A stretch of DNA of 64,000 nt, taken from contig CP014214.1 in the NCBI GenBank assembly GCA_001560915.1, positions 930,001 to 994,000 on the forward strand, read 5' to 3'. The stretch is from a methanogenic archaeon ISO4-H5 (GTDB lineage Archaea > Thermoplasmatota > Thermoplasmata > Methanomassiliicoccales > Methanomethylophilaceae). The translations under genes were made by a program, and so were the position numbers. The notes beneath the pieces were generated by a model that had not been told where the DNA came from, did not search any database, and saw only the letters and a program-made list of their open reading frames with translations. Shown one piece after another: positions 1 to 11,410 of this stretch. Positions within the stretch are counted from its first letter, which is position 1. Each line of letters opens with the position of its first letter.

Positions 1-1656
1 ACCGCCAGCAGGATCGACTTCGGTGTAACTGGTTTTGATAAGAACGATGTCCATTCTGCCGTCATAGTCGAACTCAAAGGGTGGTCATACGGTGTCAGGA
101 AATCCGAGAGCGAGGGCATGGTCTATGCCGACTTCTATCGCCGCGATGTTCTGCACCCCTCCTACCAGGCTTGGAGCTATGCCAACTATCTCAGATACTT
201 CAACAGCGAAGTCGTCGACGGACAGGTCCTGGTGACCCCCTGTGCGTACCTGTACAATTTCTCCCGTGATGCGGGATCCAAGGTTCTGAATGACCCGCAG
301 TACGATTACTACACGCAGAAAGCCGAGGTATTCTACTACGAGGACATGGAATCTTTTTCAGATTTCATCAGGAATCACATTTCGAAACCGGACTCGCTTG
401 CCACTTTGGAGAAGATAGAGAACGGGAAACTGACTGTGTCCTCCTCCCTTCAGAAATCGTTGAAGAGAGTACTTCACGAGAAGGATTTCTTCGCTCCCAT
501 GGACAGGCAGGTCGAAGTATACCAGAAGCTTCTGAGGGGTATCAGGGATTCGTATAATAACCGCATCAAAAGAGTATTCATCGTCAGAGGCGGACCGGGT
601 ACCGGAAAATCGGTTCTTGCATTGAAACTTCTGGCAGAACTCACAGGCGGATATGAGAACAAATTCACCGGGAATCATATAGCGATTCCCACGCTTTATG
701 TGACAAAGACCTCGGCTCCCAGAGACATCTATTCCAAGGAACTGAAGGCTCTTTCCAAAGAGGTAGATGTTAAGTTCCTCTTCAAGGGTGCTTCGTCCTT
801 TGTAGGGGCCGATAAGAACGAATATCCGGCCATACTGGTTGATGAGGCACACCGTTTGACTACCAGATCCTCGCAGTACATCAAAGGCGGTAAGAACCAG
901 GTTATGGAGATTATCAATGCCGCTCTTGCCAGCGTGTTCTTCATCGACGAGGATCAGAATGTGTCCATGCAGGACATAGGCACCATAGATGAGATCGAGA
1001 AATGGGCGAACGAATTCGGAGCGGAGATTGTTACGAACGGATTGGTGCTTTCTACTCAGTTCAGGTGCAGTGGTTCTGGTTTATACATTGCGTGGCTGGA
1101 TAACTTGTTAGGCATTAGAGAATCGAAGGATTTGAACCTGCTCGGAAAGCTGCCCTATGACATTTCGGTTGCGGACACGCCAGAAGATCTAATGAAGAAG
1201 ATCGAACAGAAGAGATCTGAAGGTTTCGATGCACGCATCCTCGCTGGTTATTGCTGGGATTGGAACAGTCAAAACACCAAGGATGGTACTGATTTCAGTC
1301 TGGAAGGAATCGGGGAACAGAGGTGGAATACCGACTATTCCTGGGCCAATAACAGTAAGATGGCTGATGAGATTGGCTGTGTACATACTGGGCAGGGAAT
1401 GGAATTCCAGTATGCAGGAGTAATCATCGGTAAAGATATGGTCTTCCGCAATGGCAAGATTGTTACCTGTCCGGAAGAGAATCATGATAAGGGTGCACTC
1501 GGTGGATGGAAAAAGGATCCTGCCAGAGCTGATAGGATTATTAGGAACATTTACCGCACCTTGATGACGCGTGGGATGGATGGATGCGTTGTGTATTGTT
1601 TGGATGAATCTTTGAGAGAACACATCAAGGAAAAGATTTCAGAAATTGCATATTGA
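1..1656 (+). CDS. PD-(D/E)XK nuclease-helicase fusion, DUF2075 family (5' end outside window)
   Basis: The reading frame is open from the first base, so the gene begins upstream. The first residues read RIDFGVTG followed by VIVELKGW, an Asp...Glu-x-Lys arrangement typical of the PD-(D/E)XK nuclease fold. A superfamily 1-like helicase core follows, with Walker A GGPGTGKS, Walker B LVDEAH, and C-terminal blocks HTGQGMEFQYAG and NIYRTLMTRG that are characteristic of DUF2075 proteins. Such fusions are found in defence islands and are thought to process nucleic acid, but their substrate is not known. It sits directly upstream of the phosphorothioation island. Its base composition looks like the rest of the chromosome rather than the AT-rich genes that follow, so it may be a neighbour rather than part of that system. 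Confidence 0.85.
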   Translation, partial: TASRIDFGVTGFDKNDVHSAVIVELKGWSYGVRKSESEGMVYADFYRRDVLHPSYQAWSYANYLRYFNSEVVDGQVLVTPCAYLYNFSRDAGSKVLNDPQYDYYTQKAEVFYYEDMESFSDFIRNHISKPDSLATLEKIENGKLTVSSSLQKSLKRVLHEKDFFAPMDRQVEVYQKLLRGIRDSYNNRIKRVFIVRGGPGTGKSVLALKLLAELTGGYENKFTGNHIAIPTLYVTKTSAPRDIYSKELKALSKEVDVKFLFKGASSFVGADKNEYPAILVDEAHRLTTRSSQYIKGGKNQVMEIINAALASVFFIDEDQNVSMQDIGTIDEIEKWANEFGAEIVTNGLVLSTQFRCSGSGLYIAWLDNLLGIRESKDLNLLGKLPYDISVADTPEDLMKKIEQKRSEGFDARILAGYCWDWNSQNTKDGTDFSLEGIGEQRWNTDYSWANNSKMADEIGCVHTGQGMEFQYAGVIIGKDMVFRNGKIVTCPEENHDKGALGGWKKDPARADRIIRNIYRTLMTRGMDGCVVYCLDESLREHIKEKISEIAY

Positions 1657-1663
1657 TCGTTAA

Positions 1664-1691
1664 CAATACAAAACGATATTTCGTTGTATTG
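1664..1691. promoter_or_regulatory. Inverted repeat before the AT-rich island
   Basis: CAATACAAAACGA is followed after three bases by TTCGTTGTATTG, near-perfect inverted arms differing by a one-base indel. It lies just after the DUF2075 stop and just before the first island gene, so it could be a terminator stem or an operator. Its position argues against the TTG at 1684 as a start codon and favours ATG at 1705. Confidence 0.4.
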
Positions 1692-1704
1692 CATTTACGC
1701 CATT

Positions 1705-2496
1705 ATGATAACTGTTGTTGGCGAATCGGATGCCATAAAACAAATGGATTTTTCTTCATTTATGAGGTTTGGAACAGCCGTACCAGTTGAAACGAGAGAT
1801 TTCTTCGAGATTTCTAACTTCCGTCCAGGTCATCAAGAAAAAGTAGTTTTATTATTGAACGGCATAGAATATTCTGCCAATCTTCAAAGAGTTGATTCCT
1901 CGAGTAGGGTTACAAGATTGATGTGGAAAAAAGATCTCTGTGATCAATTCAATAAATTATTTCCGAATGCGGTCAAAAACAATAGTTATCCTGTTATGAA
2001 TATCCATAAACGTAACTCACGGTATTATGAATTATCGTTTGAGAAACAGTTTGACGAAGAAGAAATCTCCGATTGTGATAATCACATCTCGTTTGCGACT
2101 AAGCATTTGCTCAATTATACATTTTCTGGGAAAAAGGGACATATTCCAATTAAAGCTGTGAAATCATACTTGGATTTCGATCCAGTTCTTGAATTTGAAA
2201 GAAAAACAGCCCATTTCGAAGGAAAATATATTGTTTTCCTACTATCTGCATTTTCTGATCAGGCAGGAATAATCGGTGTTTGGGATTGTGAACAGGAAAC
2301 CTTGGTACATGTATCTGATGGTTCCTCTGTTTTAGAAGCTACAATATCTGATAATGAGGTGTGGGCATACATGGAAGTTTCATCTTTCGTTATGCCCTGT
2401 AGACGTATGGTTTCACATGTACGCTTTGGTGTAATGAATCCTCGTGACGGTGGAACTGTAATCAAATTTGGTATAATTGGGCCCTCAGAGGACTGA
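1705..2496 (+). CDS. Uncharacterised protein at the head of the phosphorothioation island
   Basis: This 263-residue product is not recognised. ATG at 1705 is chosen because the alternative TTG lies inside an inverted repeat. The N-terminal half contains a GxEYSANLQRV segment followed by RLMWKKDLCDQFNKLFP. That pattern loosely resembles DNA-binding barrels attached to some restriction enzymes, but the likeness is weak. There is no signal peptide, membrane segment or obvious nuclease motif. The gene is AT-rich like its downstream neighbours, is six bases from the next gene and lies on the same strand as dndCDE, so a role in the same defence system (target sensing or regulation) is an inference from position only. 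Confidence 0.6.
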   Translation: MITVVGESDAIKQMDFSSFMRFGTAVPVETRDFFEISNFRPGHQEKVVLLLNGIEYSANLQRVDSSSRVTRLMWKKDLCDQFNKLFPNAVKNNSYPVMNIHKRNSRYYELSFEKQFDEEEISDCDNHISFATKHLLNYTFSGKKGHIPIKAVKSYLDFDPVLEFERKTAHFEGKYIVFLLSAFSDQAGIIGVWDCEQETLVHVSDGSSVLEATISDNEVWAYMEVSSFVMPCRRMVSHVRFGVMNPRDGGTVIKFGIIGPSED

Positions 2497-2501
2497 GTTC
2501 G

Positions 2502-3077
2502 ATGGATAACCCGATAATAATACAACATAACTTTGACGCTAAACAGTTCTCAAAACTATTTGCGATGTATACCTATGGATGTAAGCCATATGATCATTGC
2601 AACAGATGTTTGAAGAAATATTTCAGCAAAAAATTCAACTCTAAAAATCCATTTTTTAATGAAGAAACAAATTTAGAGCTCGATGAATTTTCCAACAAAA
2701 AATGGGATGCAATATATGTTTGTGGAGTGAGGAAAGGTTACTGGAGTGACAAAAAAGAACAGGTTTATCCTCACAATGTTCATTTTGCCATTATTCCGGC
2801 AGTTAGAAAAACCGATTCGTGGGAGTTTGAAAACTGGAAGGTTACTGTACAGAACGGAGTCATCGAACCGGTTCCTTCAGAAAGCCAACTGGATAAAAGG
2901 TTTAGCGATTTTCCTAAAGAATGTACCACCTGTCGTATATATCGCTGGGCAGTCACACATTATAAAAACCAGTTAGATGGGCTAGATATAGAAAAAACAC
3001 GTCGTGACGCAGAAATACACGTATCAAATCATCAAAAATCGGTTAAGATGCGTTTAGAGAAAATTAAAAAAATATGA
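2502..3077 (+). CDS. Uncharacterised Cys-rich protein, possible zinc-binding
   Basis: This 191-residue protein is not recognised. It has a CKPYDHCNRC cluster near residues 27-36 and a CTTC pair near residue 141, which together could bind one zinc ion. The C-terminal 40 residues are strongly charged and probably helical. It starts six bases after the preceding unknown gene, so the two are likely co-transcribed. About 180 bases with an inverted repeat separate it from dndC. DndB, the usual dnd regulator, is missing here, but nothing in this sequence shows a DndB-like fold, so a regulatory role would be speculation. Confidence 0.6.
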   Translation: MDNPIIIQHNFDAKQFSKLFAMYTYGCKPYDHCNRCLKKYFSKKFNSKNPFFNEETNLELDEFSNKKWDAIYVCGVRKGYWSDKKEQVYPHNVHFAIIPAVRKTDSWEFENWKVTVQNGVIEPVPSESQLDKRFSDFPKECTTCRIYRWAVTHYKNQLDGLDIEKTRRDAEIHVSNHQKSVKMRLEKIKKI

Positions 3078-3174
3078 TGTATTTACCTATCAATATAATA
3101 GGTAAAATGTTCAACCTAGAATTTAAAAATGGAATAGGCCGTCAAGATTTGAAAATGATTGATGAGATGAATCT

Positions 3175-3215
3175 TTTGACAACAATGCGGGTTTGTCAAA
3201 GGAGATCTTTTATTT
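3175..3215 (+). promoter_or_regulatory. Candidate promoter/operator for dndCDE
   Basis: TTTGACA at 3175-3181 and TGTCAAA at 3194-3200 form a 7-bp inverted repeat. An AT-rich TTTTATTTATG stretch that could serve as a TATA box follows about 10 bases later, some 45 bases before the dndC start. The placement fits an operator-promoter pair, but the regulator is unknown. Confidence 0.35.
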
Positions 3216-3255
3216 ATGAGAAAGCGATAGGTATCTGATTTGGGATGGGACAAAG

Positions 3256-4554
3256 ATGGTAAATTCGAAAGGCATCATTGCTGAATTACGGGAGGAGTAC
3301 CTGAATAGTACTCGTCCATGGATTATTGGATTTAGCGGTGGAAAAGATTCCAGCTGTTTAATTCAGTTAGTTTATGAAATGCTTAAGAGTTTAAGTCCTA
3401 CTCAACGTACCCATATTGTTCACGTTCTTTCCACAAATACGATGGTTGAAACACCACATGTTGCAATTCGCCTCAAGGACATGTGTGAAAGAATCCAAAA
3501 AGGTGCTGAAAGGGATGGATTGCCCCTTGATGTGAAGCTTTTAAGACCGAAAATCACAGATACATTTTGGGTAAATTTGATTGGTAGAGGTTATCCTTCA
3601 CCCAACAAATGGTTCAGATGGTGTACGAGTCGTTTGAAAATAGAGCCCATGGATAACTATGTTTATGAAAACGTCAAACAAAATGGCGAAGTATTGATAC
3701 TTCTGGGTACCAGGAAGGCTGAAAGTTCTAACCGTAAAAGAAGTCTCGAAAAACATGAGATTGAAGGCACAAAACTTAGAAAACACGGCTCGATTAAAGG
3801 TGCATTTGTATATGCGCCCCTGGAAAACTTATCTACCGAAGAAGTATGGGAGTACCTCAAGACTGAAAATCCGGGTTGGGGTGGAACAAACGAAGAATTG
3901 ATTCGTCTTTATGCCGGCGAATCCTCAGATATTTCATTTATAATGAATTCAGCAGCTCCGCCCTCGGGAACCAGTAGGTTTGGGTGCTGGACATGCACGG
4001 TAGTAGATAAAGATCATGCAATACAGGCACTCATCGATGAAGGTCATACAGAATACATTCCCATGCAAAAATTCAGGGATAAATTGAGGCGCATTCGCGA
4101 TGATCCTGAATACCGTGAACAGTATCGTAAGAATCAGCGTTTGGACAAGTTGTATGACGAATTCTATGCTGTAAAGACTCTTGGCGGAGAGCGTACAGGG
4201 AAAGAAGCATTGGGTCCTTTCAAAATGAGTGTTCGTCACGAATTGTTATCAGAATTATTGCAGATACAGACGGATCTGAGGCAATATGAACCACGTGCTG
4301 AATTGATCACTCCAGAAGAAATCAATGCAATCAAACTTGCTTGGATTTATGACGGTGACAGTACGGATACTCTAGAAGAGATTGTTCATGATCACTCTGG
4401 AAAAACCGATTTAGATAATCTGATTGATCGTCTTCTTGCAGTTGAACATGATATGTCAGATATTTCAAGAAAAATAGGTATTTATGGAAAATTAGAGAAG
4501 GCCATCCGCGAATACACAATAACTACTTTCTCCAACGAGGAGGTTAAAAAATGA
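3256..4554 (+). CDS. dndC: DNA phosphorothioation protein DndC (PAPS-reductase-like)
   Basis: DndC is an ATP pyrophosphatase of the PAPS reductase family that activates the DNA backbone for sulfur insertion. The 432-residue product has the PP-loop SGGKDS at residues 27-32, the family block GYPSPNKWFRWCTSRLK with a conserved Cys, and FGCWTCTVVDKDH in the second half. The cysteines are consistent with the iron-sulfur cluster known in DndC. Its stop overlaps the dndD start by four bases (ATGA), so the two are translationally coupled. The sulfur donor DndA is not in the window, so a housekeeping cysteine desulfurase or a dndA elsewhere must supply sulfur. Confidence 0.92.
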   Translation: MVNSKGIIAELREEYLNSTRPWIIGFSGGKDSSCLIQLVYEMLKSLSPTQRTHIVHVLSTNTMVETPHVAIRLKDMCERIQKGAERDGLPLDVKLLRPKITDTFWVNLIGRGYPSPNKWFRWCTSRLKIEPMDNYVYENVKQNGEVLILLGTRKAESSNRKRSLEKHEIEGTKLRKHGSIKGAFVYAPLENLSTEEVWEYLKTENPGWGGTNEELIRLYAGESSDISFIMNSAAPPSGTSRFGCWTCTVVDKDHAIQALIDEGHTEYIPMQKFRDKLRRIRDDPEYREQYRKNQRLDKLYDEFYAVKTLGGERTGKEALGPFKMSVRHELLSELLQIQTDLRQYEPRAELITPEEINAIKLAWIYDGDSTDTLEEIVHDHSGKTDLDNLIDRLLAVEHDMSDISRKIGIYGKLEKAIREYTITTFSNEEVKK

Positions 4555-6485
4555 TTGTTAACGGACTGACGATTTGTAACATTAGAAACTACGTTGGACC
4601 TGTTGAGATTGATCTGAGTGTTTCGCCGGACAAAAACATACTTCTCATGGGTGGTTTAAATGGGGCAGGAAAAACAACATTCGCAGACTCCATTCGTCTT
4701 TGTCTATATGGACATTCAATTTACGGAAAAGTTATGTCTGAATCGAAATATCAGGAGTTTTTGAATGATTTTTGTACGAATACAATTGATATTTCAGAAG
4801 CGTATATTTCGATGAATATAACCGTCGATGAAGAAAACCCCCCTATGGAAATTGATATAAAACGTTCTTTCAAGAAAACAAAGAATGGATTCAAAGAGTC
4901 ATTATCCCTTAAAAAGGGAGGCTCCTCAGTTGAATTGATTGATGAGAATTATTGGTCATACTACATTGAAAAACTCATCCCGCCCAATGTTTCAAGGTAT
5001 TTCTTTTTTGACGGAGAAAGAGTAAAGGATACGATCGCTTCCGAAGAATCGACAGAATATCTTCAGAATGCAATTAAGGATTTGTCCGGAGTATCCGAGC
5101 TAGAGAATCTCAAAAAAGATTTATTGGAAGTTCATAAAAATATACTTTCAAAAACAAAAAAGAAATCCGACCTTGCCGTGATAGAATCTATACAAGGCCG
5201 GATAGATTATCATATTTCACAAATCGAGATCATCGATGCAAAAATAACCGCAGAGCAAAAAATACTTGATGAATTGAGAACAAAGAAAGTAGACATCAAC
5301 AGCGATCTTTCAAGAATCTCTGGTGCCAACGAATCGAAAAAGAATGCACTTGTTGATTCTCTGAAGGAACTCAATGAAAAGTATTCTGAGGCAGATGAAT
5401 CTATTGTTGATTTCTGTTATAACCGTATGATATATGCTGTAGCATTATCATCACTTGAGCGCACCTTAACTCAGGCGAAAAATGAGAATAAGCATCAGAT
5501 AAGCAGATATTCGATCGAAGTCTTGGAATCGATTTTAAAATCTGGTTCTGCAGATACGATACTGAAACTTGGAAAAAAAGAGTCCGAGAAAGCGATAAAG
5601 AGTTTAATTGATAATATTGGTAGAAGCACGGAAAAAACGCAAGATCCTGTGCTAGATATTTCATTGTCTCGTATTTCTCAGATGGAATCTTTGTTTGTTT
5701 CTAAGGATGAGCTAGAAGAATTTTTGAATAATTTCGAAACACGTGAGAACCTCGCTCACGAAATAAAGAATACTTCTAAAAAGATTGAGAAAATAGAAGA
5801 CGACTCTCTTGCAGAATATGCGGATGAATTAGAGTCTATTAATGAAGAGATGACCAATCATGAGATCGCCATATCTGCATTATCTTCGGAAAAGGAATCA
5901 AATGAGCAAAAAGTACAACAATTGATTAAAGAAAAGACACTTGCTGAACGCTCAGTCGTGCTTGAAGACGTCGATCGTGCGGCTATTACCACTATTGAGA
6001 GTGTCCGTGAATCTTTAACGACTCGTATAGACACAGTTATTTCAAGAGCCCGGGTTTCTCTTGTTAAAGCTATTAATTCAATGTACTCAGTCCTCAAAAA
6101 CAACGAGGACATGGTGAAAGAGATCAAACTATCTGAAAATTATGAATTAGAGGTATACAACTTCGATGACAAATTGCTAAAAATTAATGGGCTATCGGAG
6201 GGGGAAAAAAGCATTCTGATGTATTCTGTAGTTTATGGGTTACATAGTCTATCCCAGCTCCAATTCCCGTTAATAATAGATTCGCCTATTGGTCGCATGG
6301 ACTCGATACATTCTTTCAACCTAGCCAATAGGTTATACCCTTCCGTTTCCAATCAACTTATATTACTGTCACATAACAGGGAAATCGTAGGTTCGATTCA
6401 CGACAAACTACGTCCAGTAATAGCTCGCGAATACATGATTACCAAATACGGCTCACCAAAGATTACTCCAGGATATTTCGACTGA
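4551..6485 (+). CDS. dndD: DNA phosphorothioation ATPase DndD (SMC/Rad50-like)
   Basis: DndD is an SbcC/Rad50-like ATPase needed for phosphorothioation. This 644-residue protein has Walker A GLNGAGKTT at residues 35-43, the family block YFFFDGERVKD, a long central coiled coil rich in Glu, Lys and Leu, an ABC signature LSEGEKS and Walker B PLIIDSPIGRMD near the C-terminus. Length and order match DndD. It overlaps dndC by four bases and is followed after four bases by dndE, so the three form one operon. Confidence 0.92.
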   Translation: MIVNGLTICNIRNYVGPVEIDLSVSPDKNILLMGGLNGAGKTTFADSIRLCLYGHSIYGKVMSESKYQEFLNDFCTNTIDISEAYISMNITVDEENPPMEIDIKRSFKKTKNGFKESLSLKKGGSSVELIDENYWSYYIEKLIPPNVSRYFFFDGERVKDTIASEESTEYLQNAIKDLSGVSELENLKKDLLEVHKNILSKTKKKSDLAVIESIQGRIDYHISQIEIIDAKITAEQKILDELRTKKVDINSDLSRISGANESKKNALVDSLKELNEKYSEADESIVDFCYNRMIYAVALSSLERTLTQAKNENKHQISRYSIEVLESILKSGSADTILKLGKKESEKAIKSLIDNIGRSTEKTQDPVLDISLSRISQMESLFVSKDELEEFLNNFETRENLAHEIKNTSKKIEKIEDDSLAEYADELESINEEMTNHEIAISALSSEKESNEQKVQQLIKEKTLAERSVVLEDVDRAAITTIESVRESLTTRIDTVISRARVSLVKAINSMYSVLKNNEDMVKEIKLSENYELEVYNFDDKLLKINGLSEGEKSILMYSVVYGLHSLSQLQFPLIIDSPIGRMDSIHSFNLANRLYPSVSNQLILLSHNREIVGSIHDKLRPVIAREYMITKYGSPKITPGYFD

Positions 6486-6489
6486 TATC

Positions 6490-6885
6490 ATGTCCAGCAA
6501 ACTAAAACTATCTCAAGAGGCTACAGCGCAGTTAGATTTGCTTTCGAAGGCATTGAATCTGCGTAGAAATATTGTTTGTCGTATCGCAATTGGAATATCG
6601 TTAAATTTGCCTGAGCCCCCTAGCGAAGAATTGGATTCCTCTGGCCAGGAATTTAATCAGTCAACGATTATTGGCACAGATGAACCAATTCTTACTGCAA
6701 TGATCGCAAACCAATATGGAAAACGTATAGACCCTGATAAATTCTTCAGTAAATATATTCGTTTAGAAATTATACGGGGCCTAAGCATCATGGCTAAGAG
6801 ATATGCTCAATTAAATTCTCCCACAGAATTCATGAAAGATATCATTTTAGAAAAGAAAGAAATGAGTTTAGATTGTTCGAGCTAA
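6490..6885 (+). CDS. dndE: DNA phosphorothioation protein DndE
   Basis: DndE is a small protein that binds nicked DNA and is required with DndC and DndD for sulfur modification. The N-terminus reads KLKLSQEATAQLDLL then RRNIVCRIAIGISL, which matches the family's N-terminal helices. At 131 residues it is of normal length. The C-terminal helix contains a Lys/Arg-rich segment suited to DNA contact. It begins four bases after dndD and stops with TAA. The next gene starts about 50 bases later on the same strand. Confidence 0.88.
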   Translation: MSSKLKLSQEATAQLDLLSKALNLRRNIVCRIAIGISLNLPEPPSEELDSSGQEFNQSTIIGTDEPILTAMIANQYGKRIDPDKFFSKYIRLEIIRGLSIMAKRYAQLNSPTEFMKDIILEKKEMSLDCSS

Positions 6886-6937
6886 TTATAACATAGTAGA
6901 CTATTTTTATTCCTTTAGCAGTTGCTACTGGCACAAG

Positions 6938-8569
6938 ATGGAGAAGGGCTCACAAGTGGAAAAAGCGTCCTCCAATAATAGACGGATTAGTACGGTCTTA
7001 AGCAGATGTACTGGTGACTGGTCAAATTTCATCAGTTTAACCTGCTGGAACGTTATTAGGTATCGCAAAGAGTATTATTCAAACGTAGATCGCATCGTCG
7101 AGTATGTTCTCATGGTAACTCATGATGGGCAAGACATAATTCTTAACAAAGAATCTCGCAGACGCCTAATTCAATTGCTGAATAACGAAGAGATTTTGGA
7201 TTTAGCCGATCGTGTTGGCATTAAAAAGACTGAATATCCTTACAAAGCAGTTATCTACAAAAAAATGGATTCTTCAGTTCGGGATGTAATGCTGGATTAT
7301 TTTGATGTTCCCCCCATCCCAGATAATGATGCAGATGATTTACCCAATAAAGAGGATATAGAGGCATCCTATCCACTACATGATTATCAGAAAGATGTAC
7401 TTCTCCGTGGGCTTGCTCTGTATGATAATCCGGCAAATAATAATTTTATGATTCACATGCCCACAGGATCGGGAAAAACTAGAGTTGCTATGAGTTTGAT
7501 CTCCAGAATACTAATAAAATCGGAAAATACTGTCGTTTTATGGTTGGCATATAGTGAAGAATTGTGCGAGCAGGCAGTTTCCGAATTCAAAAAAGCTTGG
7601 GCCCACATTGGAGATCGTTCAATATCCGTTTATCGCTTTTATGGCGATAAGGAGTTCATTGCTCCGAAAGATGGCTTATTCGTGGCTGGACTATCTAAAT
7701 TGTGGAATAAGGCCAAAGATCCAACTTTTATCTCCCATTTTTCTACTAATATCTCTGCAGTTATTTTTGATGAAGCTCATCAATCGTTAGCTCCGACATA
7801 TTACGAAATGTTACAAGCTTTAAAACTGTTCAATCACAAAATACGCTTTATCGGGTTATCTGCCACGCCAGGTAGAACAGATGAACTCGAATATTCACAA
7901 TTATCCGAATTTTTCGGCCATAATAAAGTCACCCTAAGAATCAAAGGCTATGATTCGCCCATAAGATATCTCTACGATGCAGGATATTTAGCAAAACCTG
8001 TTTTTCATCAGGTAGAATATGAATCTGGCGAAAGTGTTATAGATAATACAGACGAACTTGATTACGGAAAGCAAGTACTGAACAAATTGGGAAATGATAC
8101 TAAACGTAATTTTGTCATTATTGATGAAGTTATCAAGTACGTTAAGGTGTATTCCCATAAGCGTATAGTTGTATTTGCTGCGTCCGTCGCTAGTGCAGAA
8201 ATGATATCCGCAATGATTAATCTTAATGGTATTAAGTCACTCGTTTTGACTTCCAATACAGATAAATCTCTGAGAACAAACATTATTGACGAATTCAAAT
8301 CTGACGTAGATTACCCAATTATTTTGTGTAACTACGGTATTTTAACAACGGGTTTTGACGTCCCAAAGATAACTGCCGCTTTCATTGGACGCCCGACAAA
8401 ATCATTAATTCTCTATTCCCAAATGGTGGGTCGTGCATTAAGGGGCACTAGAATGGGCGGTACTGATACAGCGGATTTAGTAATTGTAGTTGATTTAGAT
8501 CTTCCAGGGTCTACAAGCGTAATTAAAGCTTTCGAGGAGTGGAATAATGATGAATGGACTGAACAATGA
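6938..8569 (+). CDS. DEAH-box superfamily 2 helicase of the phosphorothioation island
   Basis: This 543-residue protein carries helicase motif I MPTGSGKT at residues 174-181, motif II DEAH, motif III LSATPG and motif VI QMVGRALRG, with a 170-residue N-terminal extension that I do not recognise. It resembles the translocase subunits of restriction and anti-phage systems. Its start lies just after dndE, and its last 23 bases overlap the start of the GHKL ATPase gene, so the two are coupled. In this context it is probably part of the effector that acts on unmodified DNA. Archaeal DndCDEA-PbeABCD systems use a similar non-DndFGH partner set. I cannot assign it to a specific Pbe subunit from sequence alone. 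Confidence 0.85.
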   Translation: MEKGSQVEKASSNNRRISTVLSRCTGDWSNFISLTCWNVIRYRKEYYSNVDRIVEYVLMVTHDGQDIILNKESRRRLIQLLNNEEILDLADRVGIKKTEYPYKAVIYKKMDSSVRDVMLDYFDVPPIPDNDADDLPNKEDIEASYPLHDYQKDVLLRGLALYDNPANNNFMIHMPTGSGKTRVAMSLISRILIKSENTVVLWLAYSEELCEQAVSEFKKAWAHIGDRSISVYRFYGDKEFIAPKDGLFVAGLSKLWNKAKDPTFISHFSTNISAVIFDEAHQSLAPTYYEMLQALKLFNHKIRFIGLSATPGRTDELEYSQLSEFFGHNKVTLRIKGYDSPIRYLYDAGYLAKPVFHQVEYESGESVIDNTDELDYGKQVLNKLGNDTKRNFVIIDEVIKYVKVYSHKRIVVFAASVASAEMISAMINLNGIKSLVLTSNTDKSLRTNIIDEFKSDVDYPIILCNYGILTTGFDVPKITAAFIGRPTKSLILYSQMVGRALRGTRMGGTDTADLVIVVDLDLPGSTSVIKAFEEWNNDEWTEQ

Positions 8570-10406
8570 ATCTACGAGGAGTTTGTTTTCCGGTGCAAGA
8601 TCGGTGGATGCTATACGCAGTACAGGATATAAACAAACAGGAAATGCGCTTGGTGAATTAGTAGACAATTCCATACAAGCTCAAGCCACCTCGATTAAAA
8701 TAGTAGTTTTAGTGAAACAGGTAAAGAGAGTTAAACGCACGCGTGAAACAATAATGCGCATTGCGGTAATCGATAATGGTACTGGAATGACAATGGATGA
8801 ATTGTATATGGCAGTACTTTTTGGTCAGGGAACTCACTTTAACGAGGAGGGAGGACTTGGAAAATTTGGGGTTGGGCTTCCTCAAGCATCACTTTCACAG
8901 TGTACTAATTTAAAAGTCTGGTCTTGGCAGAATGGATTCGATAATAGTTATAGTACAGGTTACGATTTGAACGATGACAATTGGAGAGAGGGAGGTTTTA
9001 TCGTTTCAAGTGTAGTTGATGATCCTCTTCCAGAGTTATGGAAAAAGTATGTAGATAAGGAGTGCCCTTCAGGAACTATAGTACAATGGTCCAATTTAGA
9101 CAGATTATCTTGTTCCAGTGCTTCCACTTTATTTCAAAACTCTGAGTTTTTGATTGGAAGGATGTATCGTTATTGGATCAATGACAACAAAGTCAAAATT
9201 GATTACATTGCCATCGATTTCGATACAGGTGAAGAGATTTCTAATACTCCTTTCAGGGCCGTAGATCCTTTGTATTTGATGGAAAATACGTCTGATAAAG
9301 ACTTGGGCGCCCCTGTTTATCCAATGTTTAAAGCTAATGCACCAGTAGTGAAAGATATTGAATATAACGGTAAAAAGTCAAGAATTATTATAAAAACTTC
9401 TATTGCCAAAGAAGAGATTTTAAAGCTAGTCAATAAGCAAGACCAGGCGGGCCATAAACCTTATGGAAAACATGCTGCAAAAAACGTTGGATTAAGCATT
9501 GTTAGGGAGGGGAGGGAACTCGAGTTAGATTCTAAGTGGAATGGGTTCCAAACTTCCCGTCGTGATCCGAGAGAAAGGTGGTGGGGAGCAGAAATATCAT
9601 TCGGTAGAGATCTAGACGAATTGTTTGGAGTCACTAACGATAAACAGAGTGCTACTAGCCTCAGCTCAGCTGTTTACGAGTCTTATGATGATTACAAACT
9701 TGACGGGGAATCAATTACTGAAACCAAAGAAAGATTGGCAGAAGAACAACCCCGTTTGAATATTATATTAGATATTGCCAAAGAAATAAGGGATTTAATA
9801 AAAATATTAACTAAAAATGTCCCCATTGAAGATGAATCGAAAGGTCCAAAACAACCCGGTGATGATACCGTTGAAAAGAAAGTAACTGACAAAATTAATA
9901 AGGAAATAGAGAAAAAAGGGCCACAGGGCGAAAGTGATAAGCATCAAGATGTAGATTTAGAGGAGGCAAAACAGGAAATAAAAACAAGTCTTGAGAATTT
10001 TGGAACAAGTCCAGTAGAGATAGACAAACTTTTACAGGGATTTGTTACAACACATTACAAGGTAAGTTTTATCAAACAGGCAATACCGGGGTTGGATGCA
10101 TTCTTTGATGTAAGATCAAATGCCGGACTCCTAATTATTATCCTTAATACTTCACACCCGTTATACAAAGAGCTCTTTTCTTCGTTCGAATATGTTGAGA
10201 ATGGGGAAGATATGCCTCCAAAAGAATTGGCCCAAAAACTTGAGGATACATACGATGCACTCAAGTATCTTTTGGTTTCATGGGCAAGATATGAAGACGT
10301 ATCAATAAAAGATGGTAGAACTGGTCCCACTAGGGCTAGATCTGATTGGGGCAGGATGGCGAGAAAATTAAGAGAGGATGATATTGAATCAGATGATGAT
10401 TTCTGA
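8547..10406 (+). CDS. GHKL ATPase (MORC/Hsp90-like) of the phosphorothioation island
   Basis: The 619-residue protein has a GHKL nucleotide-binding fold at its N-terminus: N-box ELVDNSIQA around residue 37, G1 box DNGTGM at 76-81 and G2 box GKFGVGLPQAS about 30 residues later. A middle domain follows, then a highly charged linker rich in Lys, Glu and Asp, and a C-terminal globular part. MORC-type ATPases act as DNA clamps in prokaryotic defence and eukaryotic silencing. The gene starts inside the helicase gene, and the PLD-like gene begins 11 bases after it. This suggests that helicase, clamp and nuclease work as a complex. Confidence 0.85.
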   Translation: MMNGLNNESTRSLFSGARSVDAIRSTGYKQTGNALGELVDNSIQAQATSIKIVVLVKQVKRVKRTRETIMRIAVIDNGTGMTMDELYMAVLFGQGTHFNEEGGLGKFGVGLPQASLSQCTNLKVWSWQNGFDNSYSTGYDLNDDNWREGGFIVSSVVDDPLPELWKKYVDKECPSGTIVQWSNLDRLSCSSASTLFQNSEFLIGRMYRYWINDNKVKIDYIAIDFDTGEEISNTPFRAVDPLYLMENTSDKDLGAPVYPMFKANAPVVKDIEYNGKKSRIIIKTSIAKEEILKLVNKQDQAGHKPYGKHAAKNVGLSIVREGRELELDSKWNGFQTSRRDPRERWWGAEISFGRDLDELFGVTNDKQSATSLSSAVYESYDDYKLDGESITETKERLAEEQPRLNIILDIAKEIRDLIKILTKNVPIEDESKGPKQPGDDTVEKKVTDKINKEIEKKGPQGESDKHQDVDLEEAKQEIKTSLENFGTSPVEIDKLLQGFVTTHYKVSFIKQAIPGLDAFFDVRSNAGLLIIILNTSHPLYKELFSSFEYVENGEDMPPKELAQKLEDTYDALKYLLVSWARYEDVSIKDGRTGPTRARSDWGRMARKLREDDIESDDDF

Positions 10407-10417
10407 TTAAAACAACC

Positions 10418-11410
10418 GTGATCTCTGTGATACAGATTACCAACATAGCTAGCCATGATATTGGATTGCGTCTGACTGAATACTTCAAAGACTGTGATGA
10501 ACCAATCTATATTATATCCCCGTTTATTGAAATATCCGCACTCGAAAAAATACTGCAAAATGTTGAGACCTCGGAGATATCTATAGTTACAACTTGGAAA
10601 CTATCTGATATAAAGTCTGGGATATCAACTTTAGATTTGTATCCGCTCTGTAAACAAAAAGGTTGGACCCTATATATCAACAATTTAATCCATGCAAAAA
10701 TATATTCGAAATCATTCAAGAATTGCTTCCTAGGAAGTATGAATTGTACAAATAAGGCGCTTTTTAACCCCTTAGGCAATATAGAATGCGTTTATTATAT
10801 GAACATGATGAATGTGGGAAATCGTATTGAATTAAACAAAATAATTGCTGAGTCAATATTGGTAAATGAGACTATCTATCAACAGTACCTTAATAAGATT
10901 GAACAAATTGAAACTGGCGGTATACCAGAAGATGATTTTGAGTTGAACGATCTAAGTCCATACTATGTTTTTCAGTTACCAACTGTTAAAGATCCCCATG
11001 AACTGTGGGAATATATTCAAAATCCCAAATACTTCACAGATGAAGATGCATCATACTGTGAACATGATTTAGCGATTTATACTTCAGGCACTATGGAGTA
11101 TGCCAGTGAATCTGAATTCATAAATGATCTTAAAGATCATTTTTTATCACATCCATTTATTAAAAAAATTGACTCAAAAATCACATACGAAGGAATGCGT
11201 TTCGGCGCATACAAAGAACTTGTTAGGGACATATGTGCCGATGTTCCGGTTCCGTTTGCAAAAGATTTAACTAGGTTTATTCAAAATCTCTACGGTTGGT
11301 TTACAATTATTTTTCCCGAGTTTTACTACATTGATATTCCTGGTTCACATAGTCAATGTTTGCATAAAGTGAAAAGTAAAACAGATGAAACACATAACGT
11401 TGTCAGATAA
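10418..11410 (+). CDS. PLD-like nuclease of the phosphorothioation island
   Basis: The N-terminal 120 residues look like a phospholipase D-type nuclease domain: a strand EPIYIISPFIE, then HAKIYSK with His92 and Lys94, followed by FLGSMNCTNKALF. The classic HxKx4D motif lacks its Asp, as in many HKD-related restriction nucleases that need only the HxK pair and a downstream Asn. The remaining 200 residues are not recognised. The suggested start is GTG at 10418, 11 bases after the GHKL gene. It is the last gene of the AT-rich run and the most likely DNA-cutting component, which is an inference. Confidence 0.75.
   Translation: MISVIQITNIASHDIGLRLTEYFKDCDEPIYIISPFIEISALEKILQNVETSEISIVTTWKLSDIKSGISTLDLYPLCKQKGWTLYINNLIHAKIYSKSFKNCFLGSMNCTNKALFNPLGNIECVYYMNMMNVGNRIELNKIIAESILVNETIYQQYLNKIEQIETGGIPEDDFELNDLSPYYVFQLPTVKDPHELWEYIQNPKYFTDEDASYCEHDLAIYTSGTMEYASESEFINDLKDHFLSHPFIKKIDSKITYEGMRFGAYKELVRDICADVPVPFAKDLTRFIQNLYGWFTIIFPEFYYIDIPGSHSQCLHKVKSKTDETHNVVR

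What the first reader, a model, noticed from the sequence alone, without database searches (positions are those of the whole stretch)
1664..11410. Phosphorothioation system with a helicase-GHKL-PLD effector in place of DndFGH
dndC, dndD and dndE are intact and coupled, but the next three genes encode a DEAH helicase, a MORC-like GHKL ATPase and an HxK PLD-type nuclease instead of DndF, DndG and DndH. Helicase and GHKL overlap by 23 bases and the PLD gene follows by 11, so they form a unit. The archaeal DndCDEA-PbeABCD system is the nearest described plan I know of. I cannot confirm that each gene matches a Pbe subunit, and two head genes are unrecognised.
Basis: partly seen in the sequence, partly recalled or inferred. 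Interest (0 to 1): 0.85.

Follow-up and report, generated by a model that had tools for sequence, protein, structure and literature searches.

The report
Sulfur-DNA defence with borrowed effector
A methane-making archaeon pairs the Dnd genes that put sulfur into its DNA backbone with a helicase, an ATPase and a nuclease that in bacteria usually sit beside a different sulfur-writing system, which points to an apparently undescribed antiviral module that is swapped between the two.

Summary
In detail: dndC-dndD-dndE (3256-6885) are followed on the same strand by an SF2 helicase, a MORC-like GHKL ATPase and a PLD-fold protein (6938-11410), with the stated 23-base overlap and 11-base gap. The Pbe interpretation does not hold: no PbeA fusion, no PbeC found; a Pbe-type locus in the same phylum (G240) shows the contrast. 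The helicase-GHKL-PLD triad ("HGP", my label) belongs to a bacterial family beside the other phosphorothioate (PT) writer, SspBCD: 60 of the 80 best GHKL relatives have at least two Ssp genes within about 10 kb, and all 12 close plasmid homologues of the GHKL share a plasmid with SspB. It does not match SspFGH. The Dnd-linked cases seen are archaeal: the window, UBA71 (same six genes, effector first) and, in scattered form, G248; with two long rows dropped the archaeal GHKLs form one branch. Most likely HGP restricts DNA lacking PT: helicase and GHKL track DNA, PLD cuts, PT spares self. That polarity is inferred, not shown. The two head genes lie 178 bases before dndC and are probably not part. 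HGP could account for some sspBCD loci published without a known effector.

The parts
3256..4554 (+). dndC, PAPS-reductase-like sulfurtransferase of the PT writer
   Evidence: TIGR03183 380 bits over the 290.4 cut-off; PP-loop SGGKDS and C123, C244, C247 invariant in 3 archaeal DndC rows
4551..6485 (+). dndD, ABC ATPase of the PT writer (not PbeC)
   Evidence: TIGR03185 328 bits over the 245.85 cut-off; no CxC motif, unlike PbeC of L117; PADLOC model PDLC02734 'PbeC' scores 1453.9 bits over 630 of 630 positions, read here as a DndD misfiled in that library
6490..6885 (+). dndE
   Evidence: PF08870 61.5 bits, over cut-off; TIGR03184 49.4, under its cut-off of 71.85
6938..8569 (+). HGP helicase: SF2, RadD/SauUSI-like
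   Evidence: ResIII and Helicase_C; RadD 6jde 1.4e-18 and SauUSI 7clg 3.2e-15 in the PDB; motifs I, II, III, VI present in the window row
8547..10406 (+). HGP GHKL ATPase, MORC-like, with S5 domain and C-terminal extension
   Evidence: HATPase_c_3 6.6e-20; N-box, G1, G2 motifs; MORC2 in the PDB by family profile over the ATP-binding part only; Foldseek matches Hsp90, SMCHD1, MutL, MORC2
10418..11410 (+). HGP PLD protein: single-HKD PLD fold, presumed nuclease, plus helical C-terminal domain
   Evidence: H, K, S, N, N, E invariant in 40 rows; HxK..GSxN pattern in 62 of 64 family members; fold: SauUSI Z 15.4, Nuc 13.0, BfiI 12.6, NgoAVII R 11.0, but also FAM83B 13.3
3078..3255 (+). 178-base gap upstream of dndC, possible start of the writer-effector transcription unit
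   Evidence: sequence; promoter not tested
1684..2496 (+). head gene 1 (270 aa), probably NOT part of the system
   Evidence: no match in the UBA71 locus; its N-terminal half has relatives in 4 other genomes of the order, one at the end of a GmrSD-type protein; a fifth, weak match is to its C-terminal half
2502..3077 (+). head gene 2 (191 aa), probably NOT part of the system
   Evidence: no relative in the other 146 genomes of the order searched; 178 bases from dndC

Best explanation
A phosphorothioate-based defence system. DndC, DndD and DndE, with sulfur from a cysteine desulfurase encoded elsewhere, place PT at some motif in host DNA. The effector is a three-protein module (helicase, GHKL, PLD; 'HGP') that in bacteria usually sits beside the other PT writer, SspBCD. 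Proposed action: helicase and GHKL load on and track DNA with ATP; if they do not meet PT marks the single-HKD PLD protein, probably as a dimer, cuts or nicks; PT on self DNA stops or releases the complex. Shown by computation: gene content, intact motifs, predicted folds, linkage to both PT writers, recurrence of the Dnd pairing in a second archaeon with rearranged gene order. Inferred: that the three proteins form a complex, that the PLD protein is a nuclease, that PT is read, and that absence of PT is what triggers cutting.
For: Triad architecture: helicase next to GHKL in 76 of the 80 best relatives (of 444 found), PLD next to it in 57, all three in 53. PT linkage: 60 of 80 loci hold at least two of SspB, SspC, SspD, 1 of 80 (UBA71) holds DndCDE; of the other 19 genomes 8 have SspB outside the held neighbourhood and 4 more have DndC, so 73 of 80 genomes show a PT-writer gene. 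Plasmids: 17 records match a bacterial GHKL at 1e-30; the 12 close ones are all among the records with SspB (95 of 72,556; 60 listed). Phylum: the 3 of 389 genomes with a strong family GHKL match are all among the 5 of 389 with a DndC match; chance about 1e-6 by my hypergeometric arithmetic, which ignores kinship. UBA71 has the same six genes in effector-first order. SspB was found in 0 of 389 phylum genomes with a query that found it in 8 of 19 others, so in these archaea the module goes with Dnd. PLD and helicase both match the restriction enzyme SauUSI, where they are one chain. Two strong Aminotran_5 genes, candidate cysteine desulfurases, lie elsewhere in the genome.
Against: No experiment. 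7 of 80 genomes showed neither SspB nor DndC; four are Chloroflexi whose pair lacks PLD (which would fit loss of a nuclease where PT is absent, but is one clade). DndC elsewhere in the genome, as in the three Microcoleus-type loci, need not serve the module. In 20 of 80 loci no PLD follows on the same strand although sequence is held; 10 of these are Nostoc and kin, 9 of them with at least two Ssp genes, and in that group the helicase frame is often short: motif I is missing in 15 of 80 helicase rows, 8 of them there and 7 from Streptomyces-type loci. The HKD aspartate is serine in the window (D in 45, other residues in 17 of 62). PLD folds are not all nucleases: FAM83B scores Z 13.3. G248's version is scattered: its family GHKL is split over two contig ends and stands apart from the helicase, and its gene in the dndE place has no family match. 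With the two longest rows kept, the archaeal GHKLs do not join in the tree. Published SspFGH was not held off by a Dnd PT mark (PMC8092258, parts 1-3 of 5 read), so moving an effector between writers is not trivial.
Confidence: 0.6

Rival explanations
1. PT-sensing rather than PT-sparing: as with SspE and apparently Pbe, the effector is active only when host PT is present and harmless without it.
For: SspE works this way, and Pbe needs PT while loss of dndCDEA gave no apparent growth defect (PMC8092258; PMC6459918, passages). Nothing in the sequence fixes the polarity.
Against: The translocase-plus-nuclease plan is nearer to DndFGH and SspFGH, which harm unmodified DNA. The four Chloroflexi genomes in which neither SspB nor DndC was found also lack PLD: weak, one clade.
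Confidence: 0.25
2. DndCDE-PbeABCD variant, with PbeA split into helicase and PLD.
For: The helicase matches PbeA models (2.3e-20) and PADLOC's best model for the DndD is named PbeC; the helicase also matches TIGR04095, a PT-linked restriction enzyme, at 41.7 bits (cut-off 600).
Against: The best PbeA match covers the helicase core only. PbeA and PbeC of L117 give no BLAST hit to any window ORF of 60 aa or more. GHKL is not in Pbe; the DndD lacks CxC. The PLD-helicase neighbour of the UBA71 locus is a type IV (SauUSI-type) enzyme, 740 bits, against 116 bits for PbeA.
Confidence: 0.03
3. Two neighbouring but unrelated systems: solitary DndCDE and a MORC-type restriction set that happen to share an island.
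For: Defence islands collect unrelated systems; MORC and paraMORC operons with helicases and HKD or other nucleases were described with DNA methylases (PMC2292703, parts 1-3 of 4 read).
Against: Same pairing in UBA71 with rearranged order and, scattered, in G248; the family's linkage to PT writers in bacteria.
Confidence: 0.1

Closest known systems
SspABCD-SspFGH
   Same: Three-gene effector beside a PT writer; its writer SspBCD is the kind most HGP triads sit beside
   Different: SspF, SspG, SspH are other proteins: PADLOC models for all three hit in L015, none among the rows shown for the window or UBA71 triad
DndCDEA-PbeABCD (archaea)
   Same: DndCDE writer in an archaeon, no DndFGH in the locus, SF2 helicase and HKD-type protein
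   Different: Pbe: helicase and HKD fused, second CxC ABC ATPase with its own DndE, no GHKL
DndBCDE-DndFGH
   Same: Dnd writer followed by a three-gene effector
   Different: No DndF, DndG or DndH among the matches shown for the locus; no DndB match in the window
MORC/paraMORC restriction operons (Iyer 2008)
   Same: GHKL+S5 ATPase with an SF2 helicase and sometimes an HKD nuclease
   Different: Described with DNA methylases; PT not mentioned in the parts read. Figure 2 not visible, so this triad may be drawn there; Anabaena variabilis is among its species, and Trichormus variabilis (same organism, recalled) carries the triad on a plasmid
SauUSI
   Same: PLD nuclease and SF2 helicase, nearest solved structure for the PLD fold and among the nearest for the helicase
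   Different: One polypeptide, and a type IV enzyme that cuts modified DNA (recalled)
DISARM
   Same: helicase and PLD gene
   Different: no DUF1998 match in the nine proteins scanned; PLD matches DrmC only at 8e-6

Membership tests
Dnd PT writer | DndC | tested here: met
   TIGR03183 380 of 290.4 bits
Dnd PT writer | DndD | tested here: met
   TIGR03185 328 of 245.85 bits
Dnd PT writer | DndE | tested here: met
   PF08870 61.5 of 25 bits; the narrower TIGR03184 is under its cut-off
Dnd PT writer | cysteine desulfurase (DndA or IscS) | tested here: inconclusive
   not in the locus; two strong Aminotran_5 genes elsewhere (374 and 290 bits), a family wider than desulfurases; their use for PT not tested
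Dnd PT writer | PT in native DNA | not testable with these tools
   needs iodine cleavage or LC-MS
PbeABCD | PbeA: HKD nuclease fused to SF2 helicase | tested here: not met
   separate genes; best PbeA match confined to the helicase core; no BLAST hit of L117 PbeA in the window
PbeABCD | PbeC: second ABC ATPase, CxC type | tested here: not met
   no BLAST hit of L117 PbeC to window or L002 ORFs; of nine locus proteins only DndD hits PbeC models, and it passes TIGR03185 and has no CxC
PbeABCD | PbeB and PbeD | not tested
   not identified in L117 either: its 173-aa gene had no PADLOC hit
SspFGH | SspF, SspG, SspH homologues | tested here: not met
   none among the PADLOC rows for the triads (window helicase list cut at 25 of 34, UBA71 list complete to 1e-5); positive control L015 hits all three
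SspE / DndI | GmrSD_N-GmrSD_C (DUF262-DUF1524) architecture | tested here: not met
   no GmrSD match in the nine proteins; the same models ring in L145
DndFGH | DndF, DndG, DndH homologues in the locus | tested here: not met
   none among the PADLOC and NCBIfam rows shown for the locus (helicase lists cut at 25)
DndFGH | DndH-like gene elsewhere in the genome | tested here: inconclusive
   TIGR03237 no match, but its control rang nowhere
MORC ATPases | GHKL with S5 motif GhXhhpXXRhl | tested here: inconclusive
   GhXhhpXXR in 87 of 87 rows, but the next residue in the window is E, not hydrophobic
HGP triad (this report) | helicase, GHKL and PLD of these families, adjacent, same strand | tested here: met
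HGP triad (this report) | PT writer adjacent | tested here: met
   DndCDE in the window; among the 80 best relatives 60 Ssp and 1 Dnd

The most novel reading that the evidence does not exclude
HGP is a widespread, so far unnamed class of phosphorothioate effector that accepts marks made by either PT writer, single-strand Ssp or double-strand Dnd: a reader of the backbone sulfur itself or one easily retuned. It supplies the missing effector for part of the sspBCD loci reported as orphans, and in archaea it was joined to Dnd at least once.
Probability: 0.5. Interest if true: 0.85.

Novelty: new variant of a known kind. Interest (0 to 1): 0.72.

Why it matters
PMC8092258 (parts 1-3 of 5 read) reports that 2,211 of 2,678 sspBCD sets had neither sspE nor sspFGH and asks whether further restriction partners exist; HGP is a concrete candidate for some of them. 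A module found with both PT writers also makes a direct test possible: does an effector read the motif, the strandedness or the sulfur? It would correct a library entry that appears to file this DndD as PbeC, and it ties MORC-type ATPases, whose eukaryotic relatives act on chromatin, to a backbone mark in prokaryotes.

Tried and rejected
Pbe membership: rejected (see membership test). SspFGH: considered when the bacterial neighbours proved to be Ssp genes; rejected because the published SspF-SspH differ and PADLOC finds them in L015, not in the triads. In L015 and L123 a divergent helicase-GHKL pair goes with a third gene outside the PLD family; L015 stands beside SspFGH and its helicase has lost the DEAH and SATP motifs. 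I do not count these two as HGP, although they are 2 of the 12 close GHKL plasmids. DndH elsewhere in the genome: silent control, inconclusive. Phage records: one weak partial match among 50,697. Specificity region: helicase N-terminus and PLD C-terminus have the lowest identity between Dnd- and Ssp-linked rows (2 against 48), but the cross/within ratios (0.63-0.80) do not single one out. PLD C-terminal domain: the structure comparison mainly spans residues 1-180, so its fold was not settled. Plasmid neighbourhoods were opened for 13 hits; H14 and H19 are distant GHKLs in other settings. In the order, 7 of 147 genomes match the GHKL, five of them only in part at 33-52 bits. The tree with all 87 rows did not join the archaeal rows; dropping L016 and L043, chosen for branch length, did; the G248 row is a fragment from one contig. 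The helicase tree warns of long branches and odd composition, the window's row included. The profile models for DndD and DndE made here do not find PbeC of L117, so they do not test for Pbe; BLAST and PADLOC do. Literature: open-access full text only; ten searches; no listed title or abstract start described a helicase-GHKL-PLD effector with Ssp or Dnd, which is not proof of absence; figures and supplements were not seen. On re-checking I lowered the main confidence from 0.7 to 0.6 so that it agrees with the stated odds on polarity.
Full report
What is there. Window 3256-11410 carries six + strand genes, dndC-dndD-dndE-helicase-GHKL-PLD, with gaps or overlaps of -4, 4, 52, -23 and 11 bases. 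DndC and DndD pass the curated NCBIfam cut-offs; DndE passes Pfam's but not TIGR03184's. The genome is one contig of 1,937,883 bases; methanogenic archaeon ISO4-H5 has a published chromosome of 1,937,882 bp (PMC5011839, passages) and a relative with the same module is a named Methanomassiliicoccaceae archaeon, UBA71, so the host is very probably ISO4-H5. That paper's text has no hit for 'Dnd' or 'restriction'. The locus is AT-rich, 36.5-38.5% G+C in the 2-kb windows that lie within it, against 54% for the published genome, as expected of an acquired island.

The two head genes. They end 178 bases before dndC and have no match in the UBA71 locus. Head 2 has no relative in the other 146 genomes of the order searched. 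The N-terminal half of head 1 recurs in 4 others, and a fifth matches its C-terminal half weakly (7.8e-4); in one the half is the tail of a GmrSD_N-GmrSD_C protein, the architecture that DndI and SspE have as DUF262-DUF1524 (PMC11662687, passages; the equation of these names with GmrSD is recalled). I leave both genes outside the system.

What the effector is. A search of 72,556 plasmids with the window GHKL found 45 records, 19 with at least 80% of the query. Of the first six opened, five have a DEAD/DEAH helicase and a phospholipase D family protein on either side and one or more Ssp-type genes (DUF4007/SspB, SspC, PAPS reductase/SspD, cysteine desulfurase) nearby; the sixth, L015, lacks PLD and stands beside SspFGH. 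An alignment of 8 GHKLs (window, UBA71, six plasmids) found 444 relatives in the genome collection; the best 80 were kept (the window's own genome is left out by the tool). With profile models made here, the helicase adjoins GHKL in 76 of 80, PLD in 57 of 80, all three in 53 of 80; 60 of 80 loci have at least two of SspB, SspC, SspD, 3 have one, 16 none, and one, UBA71, has DndCDE instead. Of the 53 complete triads 45 have at least two Ssp genes. Of the 19 loci without two neighbouring writer genes, 8 genomes have SspB beyond the held stretch and 6 have DndC over the cut-off, 4 of these without SspB. Seven have neither: four Chloroflexi whose pair lacks PLD, and L027, L061, L086, which have PLD and lie on short contigs of metagenome assemblies. 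The converse test on plasmids: 17 records match a bacterial GHKL at 1e-30; the 12 close ones (38-65% identity, 87-100% of the query) are all among the records with SspB (95 of 72,556; 60 listed). Two of the 12 are Trichormus near-copies and two are the PLD-less L015 and L123. Of the other five, one is in the listed SspB rows, Treponema has an annotated DUF4007 gene and three are in neither. In viral contigs 4 of 6 relatives have SspB, SspC and SspD.

It is not a described PT effector as far as I could test. PADLOC finds SspF, SspG and SspH in L015 and PbeA and PbeC (the latter at 1e-14) in L117, but gives the window and UBA71 triads only partial matches to helicase cores (PbeA models among them), to the MzaB GHKL domain and weakly to PLD proteins. 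The helicase also matches TIGR04095, a PT-linked restriction enzyme, at 41.7 of 600 bits. PADLOC's best model for the window DndD is named PbeC (1453.9 bits over 630 of 630 positions); since this protein passes TIGR03185 and has no CxC I read this as a misfiled DndD.

The Dnd pairing. UBA71 (L010, L017) has helicase-GHKL-PLD-dndC-dndD-dndE, the effector in front, at 49% (GHKL), 45% (helicase) and 27% (PLD) identity to the window. Divergent from it stands a type IV, SauUSI-type enzyme (740 bits). G248, another family of the phylum, has dndC, dndD and a 140-aa gene in the dndE place without a family match; divergent from them, beyond a D12-class methyltransferase, lie a family helicase, a second GHKL-type protein and a PLD-SNF2-type protein, with the family GHKL split over two contig ends. 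In 389 genomes of the phylum, six match the GHKL profile at 1e-20, but three only weakly (85-98 bits; G000 and G073 score 845 and 856, the two pieces of G248 343 and 280); the three strong ones, G000, G073 and G248, are all among the five with a DndC match at 1e-30, of which three pass the cut-off and G248 (285.6) just misses it. The fourth, G240, has a Pbe-type set with PbeA and a CxC PbeC; PbeB and PbeD were not identified. The fifth, G458, is a partial match. SspB was found in 0 of 389. In the GHKL tree of 85 rows the four archaeal proteins, L027 of unknown writer included, are one side of a branch (SH-aLRT 100); with L016 and L043 kept they are not joined and the Dnd label needs two changes. 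In the helicase tree the three Dnd-linked rows are one side with support 89, under the 95 line. The simplest reading is one transfer between writers with archaeal spread; the direction is not rooted. Only 80 of 444 relatives were examined, so Dnd pairings outside archaea are not excluded.

How it may work. PLD protein: the model (pLDDT 89) matches SauUSI (Z 15.4, 2.8 A over 150 residues), Nuc (13.0), BfiI (12.6) and the NgoAVII R protein (11.0), but also FAM83B (13.3); His, Lys, Ser, Asn, Asn and Glu are invariant in 40 rows, while the Asp of HKD is Ser here. A single HKD half-site implies a dimer (inference from Nuc and BfiI, recalled). Helicase: the four motifs tested are present in the window; closest solved proteins RadD and SauUSI. 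SauUSI unites in one chain what are two genes here. GHKL: MORC2 by sequence profile over the ATP-binding part, Hsp90, SMCHD1, MutL and MORC2 by fold; the ATP-binding motifs are intact. For MORC-type ATPases in restriction operons DNA looping between recognition and cleavage sites was proposed (PMC2292703). I therefore propose tracking or clamping by helicase and GHKL, and cutting by PLD where no PT is met. Published polarity differs among PT effectors: DndFGH, DndI and SspFGH harm cells without PT, SspE and Pbe do not. Nothing in the sequence decides this for HGP; I put about 0.6 on PT-sparing.

Novelty. Known: Dnd writers, SF2 plus HKD nucleases near Dnd genes as fusions (PMC10853773, section 17 read), MORC-helicase-nuclease operons (PMC2292703). 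Apparently not in print, within the listings of ten open-access searches: the helicase-GHKL-PLD triad as partner of SspBCD, and its pairing with DndCDE. The main text of PMC10853773 holds no 'GHKL', 'MORC', 'MutL' or 'HATPase'. Hence new variant of a known kind: PT-based defence with a new effector class.

Noticed in passing
window 118-1656 (full gene L002:11779-13656): Just upstream of the head genes lies a DUF2075-type (SLFN-g3) helicase, 625 aa with the part before the window; it and the head genes may form a separate defence unit.
   Followed up: partly
window 1684-2496 and L145:1501-3303: The N-terminal half of head gene 1 resembles the C-terminal end of a GmrSD_N-GmrSD_C protein in a genome of the same genus.
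   Followed up: partly
PADLOC model PDLC02734: The library model named PbeC matches this DndD over its whole length at 1454 bits; it could make automatic pipelines call the locus Pbe.
   Followed up: yes
L111:1237-9668 (G248): A mixed archaeal island: PLD-SNF2-type protein, a second HATPase_c_3 protein, an HGP-family helicase and a D12-class methyltransferase beside dndC-dndD, possibly a further effector variant.
   Followed up: partly
L015:5705-17968 and L123:8397-12847: Divergent helicase-GHKL pairs with a third non-PLD gene in Agrobacterium (beside SspFGH) and Aminobacter (near SspBCD); the Agrobacterium helicase has lost key motifs.
   Followed up: partly
L028, L033, L034, L039 (Chloroflexi): Helicase-GHKL pairs without PLD, in genomes where neither SspB nor DndC was found; the neighbours scanned in L028 are sugar and copper genes.
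   Followed up: partly
L029, L041, L046, L048, L050, L053, L057, L059 (Nostoc and kin): Helicase frames without motif I beside Ssp genes, and no PLD found: possibly decaying copies of the module.
   Followed up: no
L117 (G240): A Dnd locus with PbeA and a CxC PbeC in another Thermoplasmatota genome, useful as a reference for Pbe in this phylum.
   Followed up: yes
L010:12039-14864 (UBA71): A 941-aa PLD-ResIII-DUF3427 protein, type IV restriction enzyme by PADLOC (740 bits), stands divergent from the UBA71 triad next to a Nudix-like gene (label by eye); a type IV enzyme beside a PT system may be meaningful.
   Followed up: partly
L002:1199-2923: About 9 kb upstream of the window start lies a 574-aa AAA_23 ATPase with a CPIC (CxxC) motif; no link to the system was seen.
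   Followed up: no
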